Shown here in pieces: positions 14,346 to 23,662 of a stretch of DNA of 42,388 nucleotides; the first letter of the stretch is position 1; each line of letters begins with the position of its first letter. The translations under genes and the position numbers were made by a program. The DNA is from a virus. The stretch is from IMG/VR virus record IMGVR_UViG_3300034103_000802, positions 1 through 42,388 of that record. One strand, written 5' to 3'. A model generated the notes under the pieces. The model had not been told where the DNA came from. It saw only the letters and a list, made by a program, of their open reading frames with translations, and did not search any database.

Positions 14346-14974
14346 GTGCCGTCCTCGGACGGCCAGTGATGGCAGAGGACTCTGCCCGTCGTGTTGAGCG
14401 TCGTCGCCTCTGGGTAGCCAAAAAACCCGCCGAGTGCTGGGTCCGACTCAGATCGTTCGACGGGCTTCGCATGGACGTGCATCGTCCTGATCGTCAGGCA
14501 GGGATTGATCACCTCCATTCCGCTCAGAGCGCCCCACCCTGCGATCACCGAGTCGCATCCGACGATACCCAGCGGAATCTCTGCCGAGAGCTTTGGGATC
14601 TCGCCGGCCACGAACGCCCACGAGTCTTGACTCCCGCTGTAGAAGCTTTCGTCTCTCATCCATCCAAGAAACCTCGGGCTCGACACCGTCTCCCACCTTG
14701 TGAGAGCGATGAGTCTATTGGGCTTCTTCAGCCCGACGAGCGAGTAGACGCTAGAGCCGAACGTGATGTCGGAGTTCGCGACGACACAGAGCGTGCCGCG
14801 ATACTTGCGGTTGCAATGCTCGACAAGCTCGTTGAACGTCAGCCTCTGGGTTGTGCCGTCGAGATACTCGACGCGGCTGAAGACTCCAGAGTTCTCGTTG
14901 TGTTCCCGGCAGGACCGTAGCTCGCGGTTGCGTTCTTCCGTGTCGGCTACGTAGCTCTGCGAGACGAGAATCAT
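14306..14974 (-). CDS. Hypothetical protein of sugar-modification cassette, glycosyltransferase-like
   Basis: 222 residues from an ATG overlapping the methyltransferase stop (ATGA). It begins MILVSQSYVADTEERNRELR and contains VVANSDITFGSS at about 73-84, reminiscent of the D-containing loop after strand 4 of GT-A folds. Also GWGALSGMEVINPCLTIRTM further on, as in family members that read a surface residue pattern. I cannot name the family. Its position between an FkbM methyltransferase and a GT-A-like gene supports a glycan-related role. Confidence 0.7.
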   Translation of the reverse strand: MILVSQSYVADTEERNRELRSCREHNENSGVFSRVEYLDGTTQRLTFNELVEHCNRKYRGTLCVVANSDITFGSSVYSLVGLKKPNRLIALTRWETVSSPRFLGWMRDESFYSGSQDSWAFVAGEIPKLSAEIPLGIVGCDSVIAGWGALSGMEVINPCLTIRTMHVHAKPVERSESDPALGGFFGYPEATTLNTTGRVLCHHWPSEDGTWEFKWQLCHTKK

Positions 14975-15564
14975 TCGCCGATCGCCCAGCAATGCCCGGG
15001 GTGAGCCAAGAGCGGGTGCGGGATCCTCGTGACACGCTTGCCGAGTCGCTCAAGCTCGACTGCGACTTCGGCGAACGTGTCGTGACACTCGACGACGAAC
15101 GTCGTTCGAGCCCAGCGGCCGGCGTCGACGCACCCCCGCAGGGCGATCACCTCGCCGCCCTCGATGTCCATCTTCACGAAGTCAGCACCGTCCTCGCACG
15201 CGTCGTCGAGAGTCAGGCACGGGATCTGAACCTCCTCGATCACCGGGACTGGCCGCATGCCCTCGCCGCCGATCGGGTGGACTTCGAGGATCGAGTTGTG
15301 ACCTGACGACGAGCGAATGTAGAACGGGATCTCGCCAGTCTCGTCGGCGATCGCCGCCTTGATCGCCGTGACGTTGTCGCCGGCCTGAAGCTTCGAGAAG
15401 TTCCTCTCGTCTGGCTCGAACGCCAGAACGGAGTCAAACAACTCAGCGAGCGGCTTCGTCCAACCGCCGACGTTCGCGCCGACGTCGACCGCCAGAGCCT
15501 TGCTCCTGAGACGATCGATCGCTTCCATCACGGGCTGCGTGAGCCAAATCTCTGTGCCGTCCAT
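14971..15564 (-). CDS. FkbM-family SAM-dependent methyltransferase
   Basis: 197 residues. The SAM-binding motif I is AVDVGANVGGWT (25-36), the acidic residue after strand 2 is in LAFEPDERNF, and the FkbM signature VKMDIEGGEV lies at 130-139. The length is a bit short of full FkbM proteins but the whole Rossmann core is present. FkbM enzymes O-methylate sugars or polyketides. With the two neighbouring glycosyltransferase-like genes it could alter surface polysaccharide or a virion glycan, for example to block superinfection. The start is three bases after the HTH gene's stop, behind GAGGATC. Confidence 0.88.
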   Translation of the reverse strand: MDGTEIWLTQPVMEAIDRLRSKALAVDVGANVGGWTKPLAELFDSVLAFEPDERNFSKLQAGDNVTAIKAAIADETGEIPFYIRSSSGHNSILEVHPIGGEGMRPVPVIEEVQIPCLTLDDACEDGADFVKMDIEGGEVIALRGCVDAGRWARTTFVVECHDTFAEVAVELERLGKRVTRIPHPLLAHPGHCWAIGE

Positions 15565-17653: not shown

Positions 17654-17924
17654 CAAGAATCCTTTCAGCCTCATCCCGGCTCGTCACCACCTCGGCGACG
17701 GCCCCGCCGACCTCCCTGATCTCCCTGATCCGCTGCACCTGTAGCGGCCTCGGCTTCTGCCCCGGCCTCTTTACCTCGAAGAACACCGCGCGTCCGTGCT
17801 TGATTACGAGCAGATCTGGCACTCCAGCCATTTGCATGGGTCCGCCGGCGATCTTGAACGTCCACCAGCCCTTCGCTTTCGCGAGGGTCACGATGGACTT
17901 GGTGATGGCGGACTCCAACGGCAT
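17631..17924 (-). CDS. VRR-NUC domain nuclease
   Basis: 97 residues. ATG 17924 gives a compact VRR-NUC domain: PLESAITKSIVTLAKAKGWW, a TFKIAGGP strand, then GVPDLLVI (D of PD), FFEVKRPGQKP (E-V-K), and the closing GGAVAEVVTSRDEAER. Length and motif order fit stand-alone phage VRR-NUC enzymes of the PD-(D/E)XK superfamily, which cut branched or structured DNA such as Holliday-type junctions. It overlaps the upstream GP88-like gene by 37 bases. A role in junction resolution or packaging clean-up is inferred. Confidence 0.88.
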   Translation of the reverse strand: MPLESAITKSIVTLAKAKGWWTFKIAGGPMQMAGVPDLLVIKHGRAVFFEVKRPGQKPRPLQVQRIREIREVGGAVAEVVTSRDEAERILDASDVRV

Positions 17925-18640
17925 TCCTTTGCCCCTTCGATTGCCCATCCGTTGAAGCACCGACGACACGTGCCGCAGACTCCAGTGATGTCCTCGTTCG
18001 CATTGAGCGGGCAATCGTTTCCGTACAATTCGGACCCCTGAGGGTCGTACCCGTCTCGGAAGATCACCGGCGCGACGAGAGGGTCTGGCGGAAGCTCGCC
18101 CTTGTCGCACTGATAACTCCAGAACCACTGGAGCCCGGCCGGCGCCAGAGCCCGCATCTCGTCGAGCCGGGCCCACGAAGACTTGTCGACCGACAGGTGG
18201 ACGTAGACGTTGTCGCGTGGCTTGATCAAGCTGGCGAGCTTCGGCTTGCGACTCACGACCCACTGCGGGATCGTCGGCATCAAGTATGCCGCCCAGTCGA
18301 TGCACGTGACGCTGGCGTCGACCAAGTCTCCGCCGCCGTTCCAGCGGATGTAGTCGAGCTTGAGTCTCGCGGCCCAGAGCGAGATGCGGCCGGCAGTCTC
18401 TTCCGGGGCGGCCTTGATCGAGTTGAGCAGCCGGTGCTGCTTCTTGAGGGACGCCGTCCACGTCGACGGCCCCTTCGCGAAGTAGCACGTCTCGCCGCAC
18501 ACGATCGTCGGCGTGCATGTCCCGATGATCGGGACGTTCAACGAGTGGCCGGTGACGCGGTTGTTGCTGAACGGATTCTCGTTGTCGGCGAGGAGGTCGG
18601 TGTAGGCGACGTGCTTTTTGGCTAAGTGTCGAACCGTCAT
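17888..18640 (-). CDS. GP88-like Cys-rich phage protein
   Basis: 250 residues, ATG 18640 behind AAGGAAG. N-terminal Cys42, Cys48 and Cys52 (CTPTIVCGETCYFAKG) and C-terminal CPLNANED, then CGTCRRCF, form a metal- or FeS-binding set. The middle (WNGGGDLVDASVT, then PQWVVSRKPKLASLIKPRDN) matches the GP88/Gp37-Gp68-type barrel proteins of phages, which are sometimes compared with radical-SAM folds. A classical CxxxCxxC is not seen. Family function is unknown. It is the first gene after the structured repeat block at 18641-19072. Confidence 0.7.
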   Translation of the reverse strand: MTVRHLAKKHVAYTDLLADNENPFSNNRVTGHSLNVPIIGTCTPTIVCGETCYFAKGPSTWTASLKKQHRLLNSIKAAPEETAGRISLWAARLKLDYIRWNGGGDLVDASVTCIDWAAYLMPTIPQWVVSRKPKLASLIKPRDNVYVHLSVDKSSWARLDEMRALAPAGLQWFWSYQCDKGELPPDPLVAPVIFRDGYDPQGSELYGNDCPLNANEDITGVCGTCRRCFNGWAIEGAKECRWSPPSPSPS

Positions 18641-18666: not shown

Positions 18667-18705
18667 AGCCTCTCGGCGAGTTCTCGCGATCCTCGCCGAG
18701 AGGTT
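18667..18705 (-). terminator. GC-rich hairpin with T-run at end of repeat block
   Basis: Arms CCTCTCGGCGAG (18669-18680 on plus) and its exact complement (18692-18703) flank an 11-base loop. The stem can extend by one A-T and one G-T pair. On the minus strand the 3' arm is followed by CTTTTG. This is the strongest terminator-like hairpin in the block, 27 bases before the next ATG. It could also be an attenuator or RNA-protecting stem. Confidence 0.6.
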
Positions 18706-18824
18706 GTGCTGCCTGACCCCGCCGTGCCACGCATTGCCTTGCCGTGCCAAAACAAGCCGGTCCCAATGCCTGCCGAACACTGCCTTGCCTTGACGAGACT
18801 TGCCCGACCTCGAAAGTCTTTTGA
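18704..18824. repeat. Degenerate 5-bp-periodic array, third segment
   Basis: On the plus strand the text can be cut in fives: GCCGT GCCAC GCATT GCCTT, then GCCGT GCCAA AACAA GCCGG, with later TGCCT TGCCT. On the minus strand this is a run of GGCAN-like units. The periodicity is imperfect and interrupted. It is unlike codon periodicity. Confidence 0.6.
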
Positions 18825-18875
18825 ATCCCACCGCTTGGCATCGAAGCCAAGAGATCGCCGGCCGATCGGTGGTTT
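18825..18875 (-). repeat. 51-bp structured repeat, copy 1
   Basis: Identical to 18965-19015 over 51 bases. On the minus strand: outer stem CCACCG with CGGTGG; inner stem-loop ATCG-GCCGG-CGAT; then CT; then stem-loop CTTGGC-TTCGAT-GCCAAG. All pairs are perfect, making a three-way junction. Confidence 0.85.
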
Positions 18876-18964
18876 AGTGCCATGCCATGCCTCACCGCGC
18901 ATCGCCCAACCATGCCGCGCCTAAACACGCCCCGCTGCGCCGCGCCATGGGCGGCTTCCGCCGC
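18876..18964. repeat. Degenerate 5-bp-periodic array, second segment, with GNRA hairpin
   Basis: The plus strand cuts in fives as TGCCA TGCCA TGCCT CACCG, then CGCAT CGCCC AACCA TGCCG, then CGCCT AAACA CGCCC. At 18951-18964 the minus strand forms GCGGC-GGAA-GCCGC, a stem with a GNRA-type loop, directly next to the 51-bp copy. Confidence 0.6.
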
Positions 18965-19015
18965 ATCCCACCGCTTGGCATCGAAGCCAAGAGATCGCCG
19001 GCCGATCGGTGGTTT
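18965..19015 (-). repeat. 51-bp structured repeat, copy 2
   Basis: Exact second copy of the 51-bp unit, offset by 140 bases from copy 1. The same three-way junction is possible. The arrays before each copy differ from one another while the 51-mers are identical, so the unit itself seems conserved or recently duplicated. Confidence 0.85.
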
Positions 19016-19072
19016 CCTTAGCGGGCCAAGCCAGACCCTGCCGGAGCCTGCCGAGCGCCGCCGCGCCAAGAC
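19016..19072. repeat. Degenerate 5-bp-periodic array, first segment
   Basis: The plus strand cuts in fives from 19029: AGCCA GACCC TGCCG GAGCC, then TGCCG AGCGC CGCCG CGCCA. It directly follows the stop of the gene at 19073 and leads into 51-bp copy 2. Confidence 0.55.
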
Positions 19073-19693
19073 TCAAGTCGCCTCAACAGTCTCACGATTC
19101 GCTGGAGCCTGAGACGACTTGTTGATTACCTCCGCAGTGAATCGACCGTTCTGCGGACGCCAGTCTCCGAGCCCGACTCGCGTTCCAGAGGTCTCGACCC
19201 ACTGAACAACCTGAGACAGATTGATGACCGAGTCCTCGAACTGAACCTCAATCACCGTCGACCAGTTGTGAAAAATCGGCCGAGTTCGCATCACCCTGCT
19301 CTGGCCCACCTTCACGCCAGCGCAGCACCGGAAAGACTCGTCTTGCCAAAGCGACTCAGCATCCCTTGGGCCTTCGTACTGAAGCACGGCGTTCTTCTTG
19401 ACGAAGCAGACGGACTTCGCGAGCTTGCCTTCCTTCGTCACCTTGGCGGCTTCGTAGATGGAAGCCTCGACGTTGCGTGCCGGAATGACGGGCCCGCTGT
19501 CCTCGTCGATGTACAAGCCGGCCTTGAACTCGATCTCGGCCAGACGCTCGTGATCGGCGTCAGTTTTCTTCTTCTTAGACGTGATCTGCTTTATCTGCTT
19601 CGCCTGAGCGCTCAATGGGTTTGCGAGTTCCCCGTTGTGCATCAGAAGAGGGGCGTCGCCAGTCAAACGAAAGAGAATCGTTTTCCATGCCAT
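19073..19693 (-). CDS. Conserved phage protein of unknown function
   Basis: 206 residues, start ATG 19693 behind GGAGG. It begins MAWKTILFRLTGDAPLLMHN, followed by LANPLSAQAKQIKQITSKKK and a KKKTDADHERLAEIEF segment. Further on come GPVIPARNVEASIYEAAK, RVMRTRPIFHNWS and VGLGDWRPQNGRF. I have an impression of this as a recurrent phage early-gene family with this same start, but no function is known to me. The C-terminus has a beta-rich half. It is the last gene before the repeat block. The HNH frame overlaps its first 119 bases. Confidence 0.8.
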   Translation of the reverse strand: MAWKTILFRLTGDAPLLMHNGELANPLSAQAKQIKQITSKKKKTDADHERLAEIEFKAGLYIDEDSGPVIPARNVEASIYEAAKVTKEGKLAKSVCFVKKNAVLQYEGPRDAESLWQDESFRCCAGVKVGQSRVMRTRPIFHNWSTVIEVQFEDSVINLSQVVQWVETSGTRVGLGDWRPQNGRFTAEVINKSSQAPANRETVEAT

Positions 19694-19982
19694 TGCTGAA
19701 GTTCCTCCGTGATTGCTCATTGCTAAAAATAAAACCGACACCTACCGGCCTACCTTCGTACCGCCGACTGCGGATAACGCTGGTGATTGCTTCGTGGCAT
19801 TGAGAGCAAAGAGTGATCAAGTCGCCTAATACGTCTTCGCATCCAAGCCTGTCGTATGTCTTGTGATGAACTTCAAGGCGCCACTCAGCCCCGTCGTGCA
19901 AGCAAGTCTGGCATCGGTGCTGGTCGATCGCGAGCCGCTGAGACCTCTTCTCGGGCCACGAGCGTCCATAGTCGATCTTCAC
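19575..19982 (-). CDS. HNH-type endonuclease with anomalous C-terminal extension
   Basis: 135 residues from GTG 19982 (GTGA overlap with the upstream stop). The HNH core is clear: CQTCLHDGAEWRLEVHHKTY, then DLITLCSQCHEAI, with the two C-x2-C zinc pairs and the H-H pair. The core ends near residue 75. The remaining 60 residues overlap the next gene by 119 bases and look like out-of-frame text. One extra T in the TTTTT run at about 19726-19730 would create TAG at once. Either a natural overlap or an indel. HNH nucleases nick or cut DNA in homing, packaging or repair. Confidence 0.8.
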   Translation of the reverse strand: MKIDYGRSWPEKRSQRLAIDQHRCQTCLHDGAEWRLEVHHKTYDRLGCEDVLGDLITLCSQCHEAITSVIRSRRYEGRPVGVGFIFSNEQSRRNFSNGMENDSLSFDWRRPSSDAQRGTRKPIERSGEADKADHV

Positions 19983-20176
19983 TGAGGCACCCCGTGATAC
20001 TTGTCTTCGCTCGACATGCCGCGACACTCTTCGCACAGCCTCGTCCCAAGCCGATGCTCTCGCCGGCAGTGGGGGCACTTCTTCAGTTCAGGGCCGCAGC
20101 GGCACTCGTCGCAGAAGCCGTCCTTCGACGTCGTGTCTCGGCCGCACCCGTGGCAGCACGTAGGTTCACTTGGCAT
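19979..20176 (-). CDS. Tandem zinc-ribbon protein
   Basis: 65 residues, ATG 20176 within the end of the 39-residue gene. The first ribbon reads CCHGCGRDTTSKDGFCDECR. The second reads CPHCRREHRLGTRLCEECRG. Four C-x2-C pairs would bind two zinc ions. Such mini-ribbons bind nucleic acid or protein. It is coupled to the HNH gene (GTGA), so it may help the nuclease; that is inference. Confidence 0.75.
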   Translation of the reverse strand: MPSEPTCCHGCGRDTTSKDGFCDECRCGPELKKCPHCRREHRLGTRLCEECRGMSSEDKYHGVPQ

Positions 20177-20285
20177 CGATCCGAAACTCCGGACAGCCGC
20201 AGGCCTGACACAGCGAGTTCGAGTCCTTCACCGCGTTGCAGCGATTGCAGAGTCGGACGATCTCTGGCTTCTTCTTCTCAGCCAT
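20166..20285 (-). CDS. 39-residue zinc-ribbon protein
   Basis: ATG 20285 inside the end of the ferritin-like gene; TGA at 20166-20168. The product reads MAEKKKPEIVRLCNRCNAVK, then DSNSLCQACGCPEF and RIDAK. Two C-x2-C pairs make one zinc ribbon, similar to the next protein's modules. It overlaps both neighbours (8 and 11 bases), as is usual in this genome, which supports it despite the short length. Confidence 0.65.
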   Translation of the reverse strand: MAEKKKPEIVRLCNRCNAVKDSNSLCQACGCPEFRIDAK

Positions 20286-20751
20286 CGATCTGCCCGGCGA
20301 GGTAGTTGTCGATGCCGATCTGATCGATCGTCAGTCGAATTGCCTCGATCTCGGCCATGCCGTCCTCGGAGCCCTTCAAGAGTCTCGCGAAGATCGCCGC
20401 AGACTCAGCGTCACCGACGGCGACGGCGAGGAGGTAGCCGGCACGCTCGTCGTTGGCGGCCTTGGTGTCGAGGACGTAGTTGACTTGAAGGATCCCCTCC
20501 AAGTCGTGCCTCGGCCACACCGGCTCCTCGAACTGAGACAGCGGCTGCTCGTCGAAGAACTCAAGCCTCGCCACACACTCCTGAGCGTGCGACCTCTCGT
20601 CGGCGAGATAGGCCTCGAACGTCTCCGCCAGCTTCGGGTATCCCCACCGGCGGAAATGCTCTGCCTGCTCGGTGTAGAGGACGATCTGCGACCAGTGGTT
20701 CTGGAGCGCGGCCTGAAGAGCGTCAACGATCCCGTCGAGGGGCTTGGGCAT
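20278..20751 (-). CDS. Bacterioferritin-like four-helix protein with altered metal site
   Basis: 157 residues, ATG behind AAAGGATTTGCC. Length and helix layout match bacterioferritin: LYTEQAEHFRRWGYPKLAE, then LADERSHAQECVARLEFFD, ending IGIDNYLAGQI, close to the E. coli Bfr end (MGLQNYLQAQI). By eye the ferroxidase ligands Glu51 and His54 are kept (E52, H55). Glu18 becomes His19, Glu94 becomes Asp95, Glu127 becomes Ser128 and His130 becomes Gly131. The haem ligand Met52 becomes Arg53. So the cage fold is likely but normal iron oxidation is doubtful. It could bind DNA, other metals, or simply form a shell. Confidence 0.78.
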   Translation of the reverse strand: MPKPLDGIVDALQAALQNHWSQIVLYTEQAEHFRRWGYPKLAETFEAYLADERSHAQECVARLEFFDEQPLSQFEEPVWPRHDLEGILQVNYVLDTKAANDERAGYLLAVAVGDAESAAIFARLLKGSEDGMAEIEAIRLTIDQIGIDNYLAGQIDG

Positions 20752-20815: not shown

Positions 20816-21283
20816 TCACGAGCGGTCAAGATACTTTTTTGCCGCCTCCTGCACCGCTGACCTCTTCGAGACGGCGACGAGCGACTCGATGTACCAGCGG
20901 CAGCCCTCGGCGTCGATCTCCTCGAAGCTCTTGCCCGCGAACCGTCCGTCACGCATGAGAAACACGTCCTTCTGCTTGCGGTCCTCGGCGTCGAGCAGGC
21001 CCGGCACCGGGTCGACGACCATCAGGAGCAGACAGCCCCAGCCGCACTGAGCGACCCACTTGTTGCCTGCGTCCGTCTTGCGAGTGTCGACGAGGTCGAG
21101 AATGGTCATCCCGCACCGCTCGCACTGGTAGTGACCGTCGATGCTGGCGAGATATCTTGCAGGAGGTTCTTTGACGACAAGAGTCGAGGGGGCAGCCGGC
21201 GACGCTTGCCTCGCCCGCTTTGACTTCGTCTTTCTCTTGCCGTCTTCGTCCTCAGTCGGCGACGTGTCGAAGAGCATGCTCAT
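20816..21283 (-). CDS. Zinc-ribbon protein with ExoX-C-like C-terminus
   Basis: 155 residues, ATG 21283 behind GGGAGTGGATCC. The N-terminal 40 residues are a Lys/Arg/Glu-rich linker. A ribbon (CERCGMTILDLV ... CGWGC) follows. The tail reads MRDGRFAGKSFEEIDAEGCR, then WYIESLV, matching the small ExoX-like C-terminal domain (G-(R/K)-F/Y-x-G-x-T/S-(F/L)-EE-(I/V) then Y-x-x-W/S). That domain accompanies replication and repair nucleases; this copy has no nuclease domain of its own. It probably binds DNA or a nuclease partner. It overlaps the protease gene by 32 bases. Confidence 0.68.
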   Translation of the reverse strand: MSMLFDTSPTEDEDGKRKTKSKRARQASPAAPSTLVVKEPPARYLASIDGHYQCERCGMTILDLVDTRKTDAGNKWVAQCGWGCLLLMVVDPVPGLLDAEDRKQKDVFLMRDGRFAGKSFEEIDAEGCRWYIESLVAVSKRSAVQEAAKKYLDRS

Positions 21284-21998
21284 GGATCCACTCCCTGTAG
21301 AGACTGATTCGCGTGTGGTGAGACTCATCGCCGTAGGTTGATCGCGGGGCCTTGCCGATGGCGGTCATAAACGAGTTCACCCCGGCCAGCTTGCCGCCGA
21401 TGAACAGTCCGCCGCCTGAGTCTCCGGGTGCAATCATCCACTCAAGCTCAGTCCTCGTGCCGCCGAGGACGCTACACACAAGGACGCCCCGCTCAGTCTT
21501 GTCGACGATGTTGCTGCCGGCGCGTCGCCTGCCGTCGGCCGTCGTCGCCCCAGTGGAAAGCGTCCCTTCGAGTCCCCACCCGGCGATAGAGCAGACCTTG
21601 CCCTGCTCGTCATCGCTTCCGTACAAAGCCGGGTAGTGGTCGAGGCCGATGTCCTCGGAGGCATGCCCGACGGCGATGTCGTGCCAGCCGACGCCTCCAC
21701 GGCGAAACTCGTCGTGCATGAAAATCTTCGAGAGCGGCACTGCCCTGCCGCCGACGTAGACCCACCACTCGTCACAGTCCTCGACGACGTGTGCGGCGGT
21801 GACGACCCACCGGGGAGCGATCGCGACGCACGAGGCCGACGACTTCGTGCCGTCCTTGCCGCGACCCTCGATCTTCAGGACACACTTGAACCCCTCACCG
21901 TAGGCGACGTGCCTTGAGTCGGGCGTGCCGGGCTCGCGAGTGCCGGCGTCGGCAACGGACGCGAGAACAGTGACGATAGCCGCAGAAATCCATCTCAT
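21252..21998 (-). CDS. Secreted trypsin-like (S1) serine protease
   Basis: 248 residues. ATG 21998 has GGAG upstream and overlaps the helicase stop (ATGA). The signal peptide is MRWISAAIVTVLASVADAG, with a likely cut after A18 or G19. The catalytic triad is readable: His70 in VVTAAH, Asp107 in GWHDIAVGH, Ser194 in APGDSGGGLF. Several Cys could pair (57/75, 136/175). The length is normal for S1 proteases. It is exported and so unlikely to process capsids inside the cell. It may act on the envelope, a host defence or other cells. Finding such a gene in a replication operon is unusual. Confidence 0.88.
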   Translation of the reverse strand: MRWISAAIVTVLASVADAGTREPGTPDSRHVAYGEGFKCVLKIEGRGKDGTKSSASCVAIAPRWVVTAAHVVEDCDEWWVYVGGRAVPLSKIFMHDEFRRGGVGWHDIAVGHASEDIGLDHYPALYGSDDEQGKVCSIAGWGLEGTLSTGATTADGRRRAGSNIVDKTERGVLVCSVLGGTRTELEWMIAPGDSGGGLFIGGKLAGVNSFMTAIGKAPRSTYGDESHHTRISLYREWIHEHALRHVAD

Positions 21999-23662
21999 GC
22001 TGGTATCTCCAGTGAGCATCGGCCTCCATCGCCCACGATCCAGAGATCCTTTCTGGCTCGCGTGACGGCGACGTAATTGACACGACACTCCTCGTCGTGC
22101 AACTCATCGATCTTACTGCGGCCCCGCTCGACGGCTGGAGAACTCTTGGTCGACAGGATCACTGTGTCTCCCTCGCAGCCCTTGGCGCCGTGGATCGTCG
22201 AGAGTCGGACTTTCGGGCTGCACGCCGTCTCTGGCCCGAACCGCTTGGCTGCCTCGATCCATCGCGTGGCCTTCTTCACGTGCGTTTTGCCTAGATACTC
22301 CGGCCAGCGACCGTCGCGGATGATTGCGGCGAGCGCCGGCGTCGCTCCTGCGAGTGAGAGGTCTTCGTCGACAGCCCGGATGATGTCGACGCTGGACCGC
22401 AGTCCCTTCTTCCACGCCTCTTTTTCGCCACGCACGAGCAGCGGGCCCGCCTCCTTGTCGCTCGCGACGATCATTGAGATTGCGTTCGACCAATCGTCGT
22501 GATGAACGACCTTTCCGTGCTGGAGATTCCAGAGGCACGTGTATCCAGACATTTCCGAGACGCTGCCTACGCGATCGATCCACGTGTACGGGATCCGTTT
22601 TGTCCGCAGAATCTCCTCGTACTCAGCCAGAGCGAACCCGCACCGTCCGAGGATCAGGACAGACTCGTCACCCTTGAGCGATGCAATCGCCTGCATCGCC
22701 GTGCCGACACGACGCACGTTGCCCGTGTGTGAGGCCGGCTGGATCATGCGATCGCGGTAGCCGCTACGCATGCGACGGATGCAGCGTTCGCCAAGCTCCA
22801 TGATCTCCGGCGGGCACCGATAGGATCGCGGCATGACGGACTCCTCGGCCTCCCAGTTGAGAAAGAGCCTGTAGTCGCTGCCGTTGAAAGAGTAGATGCT
22901 CTGGTAGGCGTCTCCGCTCAAGAAGACCCGCTCGACCGTCGGGCTCTCGGCGAGACGCCGGCAGACTCGATCGACCAGCACCGACGAGTCCTGAGCCTCG
23001 TCGATCGCGAGTGCCCTGAGGGTCGTCGGCACCTCACCGTCGGGCCAAGTCTCCTCGGGTCCGTCGACCGTGAAACGCACGCCGGCGAATCTCGCGATGA
23101 TGTCGGTGTAGTCGAGACGACCAGATGTTCTCTTCGCCGCCTCGTACCGCTCGATGTACCGCCGAGACGCAGCCTCGTCTGGTGTCCGCTCGCACGCCGC
23201 AGCACGGCTCTTCAGGATCTCCGAGAGGCTCGTCATGTTCGCGCGGGCCAAGTCCCACGCAGCCAACGCAGTCGTCAGCGTCGAGTCTCCGTCTCCAGAG
23301 ACGAACGCGATCTCGCGGGTGCGTGAGTCGTACCGGGTGGAGACTTTCCCGCCGACAGCCTCGCCGATCCACGTGGCGCCGTCTGCACCCTCTAGAAGCT
23401 GCCCCTCCTCGACGCCGATCTGTCGGTGGGCGATCGAGTGTGCCGTCCGAAACAGCCCGTGCTTCGTCAGCGTCTCGGGGTCGCAGCCCCACTCCGCCGC
23501 CGCACGCTCCGATAGCTCCTGCCGGCCAGCGCGAGTGAAGGTGCAGAGCCCGATCTCCTCGACGCTCAGGCCAAACTCACGCTTAGTCTCGGTCAAGCGA
23601 TCGAGAATAAGCCGCGTCTTGCCGGTGCCCGGCCCGCCGATGTGCCGCTCAATCTTTCGCAT
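21995..23662 (-). CDS. UvrD/PcrA-like superfamily 1 DNA helicase
   Basis: 555 residues, ATG 23662 behind AAGGAAGC. SF1A motifs in order: I GGPGTGKT (9-16), Ia CTFTRAGRQEL, II IDEAQD (220-225), III LSGDAYQSIYSFNGSD, IV PRSYRCPPEI, V STIHGAKGCEGDTVILS, VI NYVAVTRARKDLWIVG. It is shorter than UvrD (about 720) and lacks most of the accessory domains. It unwinds DNA 3' to 5' with ATP, in replication, recombination or repair. Its stop overlaps the protease start. The gene directly follows the putative origin region and pairs with the Prim-Pol. Confidence 0.92.
   Translation of the reverse strand: MRKIERHIGGPGTGKTRLILDRLTETKREFGLSVEEIGLCTFTRAGRQELSERAAAEWGCDPETLTKHGLFRTAHSIAHRQIGVEEGQLLEGADGATWIGEAVGGKVSTRYDSRTREIAFVSGDGDSTLTTALAAWDLARANMTSLSEILKSRAAACERTPDEAASRRYIERYEAAKRTSGRLDYTDIIARFAGVRFTVDGPEETWPDGEVPTTLRALAIDEAQDSSVLVDRVCRRLAESPTVERVFLSGDAYQSIYSFNGSDYRLFLNWEAEESVMPRSYRCPPEIMELGERCIRRMRSGYRDRMIQPASHTGNVRRVGTAMQAIASLKGDESVLILGRCGFALAEYEEILRTKRIPYTWIDRVGSVSEMSGYTCLWNLQHGKVVHHDDWSNAISMIVASDKEAGPLLVRGEKEAWKKGLRSSVDIIRAVDEDLSLAGATPALAAIIRDGRWPEYLGKTHVKKATRWIEAAKRFGPETACSPKVRLSTIHGAKGCEGDTVILSTKSSPAVERGRSKIDELHDEECRVNYVAVTRARKDLWIVGDGGRCSLEIPA

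What the first reader, a model, noticed from the sequence alone, without database searches (positions are those of the whole stretch)
18825..19015. Two identical 51-bp units that fold as perfect three-way junctions, in a 432-bp non-coding block
Seen directly: 18825-18875 and 18965-19015 are identical over 51 bases. On the minus strand each has outer stem CCACCG/CGGTGG and two nested stem-loops, ATCG-GCCGG-CGAT and CTTGGC-TTCGAT-GCCAAG, with two bases between them and none before the closing strand. A third stem with GGAA loop follows copy 2, and a 12-bp hairpin with TTTT ends the block. The flanks differ, so the 51-mers look selected. Established context: phages and mobile elements often carry large structured non-coding RNAs with repeated junctions. 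Inference: an uncharacterised structured RNA or a protein-bound DNA junction, placed between a conserved phage gene, GP88-like, VRR-NUC and HNH genes.
Basis: partly seen in the sequence, partly recalled or inferred. Interest (0 to 1): 0.88.

Follow-up and report, generated by a model that had tools for sequence, protein, structure and literature searches.

The report
Tails of phage anti-phage guide RNAs
The two identical folded units are the 3' ends of guide RNAs in a recently described CRISPR-like weapon (VIPR) that this uncultured phage appears to aim at a gene of rival phages, here with a tail that folds like a tRNA lacking its anticodon arm.

Summary
In detail: two exact 51-bp copies whose minus strand folds as a three-way junction. 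What lies beside them matters more. The gene directly 5' (19073-19693, minus) encodes Vipr: PDB 36pp 'SUSP1 Vipr' matches at E 1.4e-31, and its AlphaFold model matches Csm3/Cas7. The flanking stretches are degenerate 5-nt repeats (GGY-NN), i.e. VIPR guide RNAs (vrRNAs; preprint PMC13142463, 2026). The block is thus an array of three vrRNAs; the 51-mers are the 3' tails of two, and a 12-bp hairpin ends the third. Read by the published 1-nt-skip rule, vrRNA3 matches 19/20 bases of gp88 homologues. A gapped IMG/VR scan found 8 contigs, all at the same gp88 codons, with the skipped base at the wobble position; the phage's own gp88 matches only 13/20. Relatives carry 2-8 tails with strong covariation (15 of 16 pairs), absent from Rfam. 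The tail resembles a tRNA elbow (12-bp stack, UUCRA loop, GG loop); similar tails occur in Gordonia and Mycobacterium phages. 'Orphan' tails precede rep-like genes in phages with no detected Vipr. The system is known; clade, tail class, gp88/rep targeting and orphan tails look new.

The parts
19073..19693 (-). vipr gene (phrog_4652); the ORF extends to a GTG at 19741 but homologues start at M (19693)
   Evidence: phmmer to PDB 36pp_D SUSP1 Vipr E 1.4e-31; profile E 2.2e-81; AF2 model matches Csm3/Cas7
19575..20078 (-). HNH-domain gene overlapping the 5' end of vipr; candidate vipr-accessory (vap) gene
   Evidence: PF01844; homologue at the same place in all 10 relatives checked
19023..19072 (-). 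vrRNA1 guide tract, 10 GKYNN pentamers
   Evidence: CM hit E 1.2e-11
18951..18964 (-). GNRA-loop hairpin GCGGC-GGAA-GCCGC at the 5' end of vrRNA2; GCGGC-GAAA-GTCGC in L002
18877..18946 (-). vrRNA2 guide tract, 14 pentamers; target not found
   Evidence: CM hit E 3.4e-11
18709..18758 (-). vrRNA3 guide tract, 10 pentamers; predicted target gp88 of other phages
18669..18703 (-). 12-bp hairpin followed by CTTTT: end of vrRNA3 and/or terminator
   Evidence: conserved in L002
17888..18640 (-). own GP88-like gene, divergent from the predicted target (13/20 bases)
   Evidence: PF17338 E 4e-7

Best explanation
The block 18669-19072 (minus strand) is a VIPR guide-RNA array. After the vipr gene it encodes three vrRNAs, each a tract of 10-14 G-K-Y-N-N pentamers followed by a 3' structure. 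The two identical 51-mers are the 3' tails of vrRNA1 and vrRNA2, and a 12-bp hairpin ends vrRNA3. By the published mechanism, Vipr (a Cas7-like RAMP) binds the pentamer tract; the NN dinucleotides then pair with double-stranded DNA, skipping one base between dinucleotides, and the complex represses the target gene. vrRNA3 is predicted to hit gp88 of competing phages at the codons F-S-T-N-K-V-T-G-H-S while sparing the phage's own divergent gp88. The tail is a three-way junction resembling a tRNA without its anticodon arm: 12-bp acceptor/T-like stack, UUCRA loop, GG-containing D-like loop. Its most likely role is a 3' cap or handle for Vipr and a boundary between guides. Shown computationally: Vipr homology and fold, the pentamer code, tail covariation, target matches. 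Inferred: transcription, RNP formation, repression, the tertiary elbow contact, the handle role, and Planctomycetota as host.
For: Vipr homology and RAMP fold. 5-nt periodicity of the spacers: probability of a GKY triplet at lag 5 is 0.515 vs 0.11 in shuffles, on the same strand as units and genes. Tract-then-tail order as in PMC13142463. Tail covariation: 15 of 16 pairs compensated, score 0.49 vs at most 0.11 when slid. Target test: vrRNA3 skip-1 best 19/20 vs 15 at skips 0 and 2 and at most 16 in 40 order shuffles; an 18-base gapped scan of IMG/VR gives 8 contigs, all gp88 homologues at the same codons, with synonymous change at skipped bases; own gp88 13/20. L002 vrRNA4 hits the gp88 start 26/28 vs at most 21; L009 vrRNA6 hits a rep-like gene start 19/20 vs at most 17.
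Against: No transcript data. vrRNA1 and vrRNA2 have no target above shuffles. Relatives of this clade use GKY rather than strict GGY. The tail's function is not tested, and the preprint's main text does not describe such a tail.
Confidence: 0.9

Rival explanations
1. The tails are tRNA mimics whose main job is processing: host RNase Z (3' end) or RNase P (5' end) recognises the 12-bp stack and elbow and cuts the array transcript into single vrRNAs.
For: tRNA-like geometry, conserved 5' CC / 3' GG ends and following RAT; T-arm-like tails also in actinophages. The preprint reports hammerhead-interspersed arrays, so some arrays may need cutting between guides.
Against: No CCA or RCC at the 3' side (GAT/AAT); tRNA finders and Rfam see nothing. 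It does not exclude the handle role.
Confidence: 0.3
2. The junctions are stand-alone 5'-UTR elements (stability, translation or regulation) of the gene that follows, and their place beside VIPR guides is secondary.
For: Single junctions lie 18-20 nt before the start codon, next to the RBS, of rep-like genes in contigs without a pentamer tract or detected Vipr.
Against: In array phages every unit follows a guide tract and most are not next to a start codon. No conserved unpaired core as in riboswitches.
Confidence: 0.1
3. Protein-bound single-stranded DNA junction or origin element.
For: Neighbouring genes handle DNA (helicase, Prim-Pol, nucleases); rep-like genes follow some units.
Against: Strand-fixed link to a sense-strand guide tract and a Vipr gene; U-G is the commonest pair at columns 10-44 (28 of 50) and frequent at 30-40 (9 of 50).
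Confidence: 0.03

Closest known systems
VIPR systems (SUSP1 and P. fulva clades; PMC13142463, bioRxiv 10.64898/2026.04.26.720920)
   Same: Vipr protein, GGY/NN pentamer guides of 9-16 repeats, invariable structured 3' tail, array beside vipr, phage-borne, 1-nt-skip targets in rival mobile elements with skip base at the wobble position.
   Different: Three-way-junction, tRNA-elbow-like tail instead of the SUSP1 pseudoknot; relaxed GKY triplet in the clade; HNH gene upstream as candidate accessory; uncultured, probably planctomycete phages; targets gp88 and rep-like genes.
Type III/VII CRISPR Cas7 (Csm3)
   Same: Fold of the protein (Foldseek E 4.5e-6); RNA-guided helical assembly by analogy.
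   Different: 5-nt guide period with a noncontiguous code; no cas operon or CRISPR repeats.
tRNA and tRNA-like RNAs (minihelix, tmRNA tRNA-like domain)
   Same: 12-bp acceptor/T-like stack, T-loop-like UUCRA, GG loop.
   Different: No anticodon arm, no CCA, not seen by ARAGORN or Rfam.
STAXI motif (PMC2864571)
   Same: Small structured motif repeated two or three times near genes for DNA-handling proteins.
   Different: Pseudoknot rather than three-way junction; Enterobacteriales. No link tested.

Membership tests
VIPR | Vipr protein (ancestral RAMP) | tested here: met
   PDB 36pp match E 1.4e-31; fold matches Csm3/Cas7
VIPR | vrRNAs of 9-16 GGY/NN tandem pentamers beside vipr | tested here: met
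   10, 14 and 10 pentamers, period 5 against shuffles
VIPR | invariable structured 3' tail after the tract | tested here: met
   two identical three-way junctions after tracts 1 and 2; covariation in relatives
VIPR | 1-nt-skip DNA targets in competing elements | tested here: met
   vrRNA3 to gp88; not found for vrRNA1 and vrRNA2
VIPR | accessory vap gene | tested here: inconclusive
   conserved HNH gene upstream; not compared with vap1-6
VIPR | expressed vrRNA bound by Vipr, represses target | not testable with these tools
   needs RNA-seq and pull-down
VIPR, SUSP1 clade | pseudoknot tail | tested here: not met
   nested three-way junction instead
VIPR with hammerhead-interspersed array | hammerhead ribozymes between vrRNAs | tested here: not met
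   no Rfam hammerhead match in window or L007 array up to E 10
tRNA / tmRNA | complete tRNA or tmRNA fold | tested here: not met
   ARAGORN none; no anticodon arm
CRISPR-Cas array | uniform repeats with contiguous foreign spacers and cas genes | tested here: not met
   tail units diverge within arrays with compensatory changes and spacers are pentameric; no Cas family match among window proteins scanned

The most novel reading that the evidence does not exclude
The tail is a true tRNA-elbow mimic used for maturation by host tRNA enzymes, and the orphan tails placed directly before rep-like genes in phages without a detected VIPR are RNA anti-VIPR decoys that titrate a rival's Vipr, as solitary CRISPR repeats act as RNA anti-CRISPRs (recalled from general knowledge). 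In keeping with this, one orphan-tail contig (L066) carries a 19/20 match to L009 vrRNA6 at the start of the rep-like gene just after its orphan tail.
Probability: 0.12. Interest if true: 0.88.

Novelty: new variant of a known kind. Interest (0 to 1): 0.74.

Why it matters
VIPR was reported only in April 2026 as a possible ancestor of CRISPR. This gives computational support for its unusual 1-nt-skip code in a distant, uncultured phage clade, names the targeted genes (gp88 and a rep-like gene), and provides a tail class with a covariance model absent from Rfam. The tail may tell how vrRNAs are matured and recognised. Orphan tails make the question of anti-VIPR RNAs directly testable.

Tried and rejected
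Riboswitch or other Rfam family: no match in the window at gathering scores, none in the L007 array up to E 10, one meaningless match in the window block (14.2 bits, gathering score 70.7). tRNA genes: none in the window or planctomycete-phage loci. Host-encoded element: the unit is essentially absent from 246 Planctomycetota genomes (two marginal hits); one strong hit in 60 genomes of one family (L152). Exact scans for the 45-mer in IMG/VR and for a conserved unit type in genome contigs gave nothing. No DNA similarity in sequenced phages. TRAP-like binding of the 5-nt repeats was my working idea until the Vipr match. Target of vrRNA2: exact gapped scan of IMG/VR and 72 related genomes, none; vrRNA1 not above shuffles. 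Planctomycete genomes as vrRNA3 targets: one 3-mismatch hit, while the reversed-pattern control gave three. A G-U versus A-C strand test on the CM alignment was muddied by register shifts and is not used.

Full report
Observation. The two 51-mers are exact copies, and the minus-strand fold is as described, with MFE -22.6 kcal/mol and z -2.93. They lie in a 432-nt non-coding block between a phrog_4652 gene (19073-19741, minus) and a GP88-like gene (17888-18640, minus). The record is an IMG/VR virus contig with tail, helicase, Prim-Pol and exonuclease genes.

Relatives. The closest relative, L002, has three copies between the same two genes, with loop and junction changes but intact stems. The next relatives, L003-L013 (phrog_4652 protein about 65% identical), carry arrays of up to eight diversified units of 44-46 nt separated by roughly 50-115 nt. 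I collected 52 distinct units. On an alignment of 50 of them, 15 of 16 pairs show compensatory changes; the covariation score is 0.49, against at most 0.11 when the 3' partners are slid, and is similar on the CM alignment. The units were found partly by a structural scan, so percent-paired is inflated; the variety of compensated pairs is not explained by that. A covariance model (R1) finds units in 13 of 13 phage records tested, clustered at one locus in each. They are nearly absent from sampled Planctomycetota genomes. The array seems to change by recombination between units: the window's middle spacer begins like the sequence after L002 copy 2 and continues like that after copy 3, which would account for the identical copies.

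The spacers. They are not filler. In 39 spacers the probability of a G-(G/T)-(C/T) triplet five bases after another is 0.515, against 0.11 in shuffles, and likewise at lags 10 and 15; positions 4 and 5 of the pentamer are near random. The strand is that of the units and adjacent genes.

Identity. A profile of phrog_4652 proteins matched one solved structure, PDB 36pp 'SUSP1 Vipr protein' (profile E 2.2e-81; window protein E 1.4e-31). The AlphaFold model (pLDDT 88) matches Csm3 and type VII CRISPR complex subunits (Foldseek E 4.5e-6). The preprint PMC13142463 defines VIPR: a Vipr RAMP plus vrRNAs made of 9-16 GGY/NN pentamers and an invariable structured 3' tail, binding double-stranded DNA through the NNs with a 1-nt skip. 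The window fits: vipr, then tract-tail-tract-tail-tract-hairpin on one strand (parts list). The finding's 51-mers are therefore the tails of vrRNA1 and vrRNA2.

Target test. I applied the skip rule to vrRNA3 in about 1.2 Mb of held sequence, both strands. Skip 1 gives up to 19/20 matches; skips 0 and 2 give 15; 40 random orders of the same dinucleotides give at most 16; the skip-3 match is expected, because the array itself reads that way. A scan of all IMG/VR with 18 gapped bases (the one dinucleotide mismatched in L038 left open) returned 8 contigs. All 8 are in gp88 homologues at F-S-T-N-K-V-T-G-H-S, with synonymous changes at the skipped wobble bases; three of the eight contigs (L173, L175, L176) had not been held before. 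The phage's own gp88 matches 13/20. In related arrays, L002 vrRNA4 hits the start of gp88 on the other strand (26/28, shuffles at most 21), and L009 vrRNA6 hits the start of a rep-like gene (19/20, shuffles at most 17). L007 vrRNA8 (19/22, shuffles at most 18) is weaker. vrRNA1 and vrRNA2 of the window have no target above shuffles. gp88 had been fetched as a neighbour gene, which enriches the local set; the IMG/VR-wide scan removes that bias.

The tail. The unit has a 12-bp stack (7+5 or 6+6) continuous on the 3' side, a 4-bp hairpin whose loop ends in GG (AG in two of 49 units), and a 6-7-nt loop, mostly UUCGA(N) or AUCRACG. This is the anatomy of a tRNA lacking its anticodon arm; the tertiary contact is inference. 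Gordonia phage MakoManhole and Mycobacterium phage LittleE carry, beside their Vipr homologues, GGYNN tracts followed by minihelices with canonical 7-nt T-loops (read by eye; annotation). Felixounavirus wV8 has a pseudoknot-like tail at its annotated DR_4 repeats. A second, divergent Vipr type (L036, L060; 36pp E 6e-4; hhalign E 3e-5) uses the same three-way-junction tail. Single junctions without a pentamer tract occur 18-20 nt before rep-like genes in contigs where neither Vipr type was found. These are fragments, so absence is not proven.

Limits. There is no expression data. Host assignment (Planctomycetota) rests on few metagenome-assembled genomes. The preprint's supplement was not readable here, so the tail class may already be in it. 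The HNH gene is only a candidate accessory gene.

Noticed in passing
L161 1640-1773 and 2884-3236 (PQ184807.1, Gordonia phage MakoManhole); L163 3620-3992 (Mycobacterium phage LittleE): Unannotated tandem tRNA-like minihelices (6-bp acceptor-like + 6-bp T-stem, loop TTCGANT) after GGYNN tracts beside Vipr homologues: apparent vrRNA arrays in cultured phages.
   Followed up: partly
L056, L066, L072, L098, L099, L104, L107, L136 (upstream of rep-like or other start codons): Orphan three-way-junction tails without a guide tract, next to the RBS, in contigs with no detected Vipr; possible decoys or 5'-UTR elements.
   Followed up: partly
L060 1169-1732 (-), L036 4962-5522 (+): A second, divergent Vipr type flanked by GGCNN tracts and using the same tail; an overlapping upstream ORF (MGFVYIIGES...) looks GIY-YIG or T5orf172-like by eye.
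   Followed up: partly
L145 2566-2967; L158 1-300: Long GGCNN arrays without the junction tail, in which GGCAGGC breaks the phase at varying intervals of about 39-74 nt: perhaps staggered or overlapping vrRNAs.
   Followed up: no
L166 2262-2319 and 3655-3712 (EU877232.1, phage wV8); L165 2033-2504 (Pseudomonas phage LESphi2): Repeats annotated DR_4 in wV8 coincide with pseudoknot-like tails after GGYNN tracts flanking its Vipr gene; LESphi2 has several GGCNN tracts upstream of its Vipr gene.
   Followed up: no
window 20278-20751, 21252-22088, 14971-15564 (all minus): Ferritin-like, trypsin-like and FkbM-methyltransferase-like genes in the phage.
   Followed up: no
L155 (G059:C114 near 208550): A GGCNN tract in a 249-kb contig of a 12.3-Mb genome from the Planctomycetota sample: possible chromosomal VIPR remnant or prophage.
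   Followed up: no
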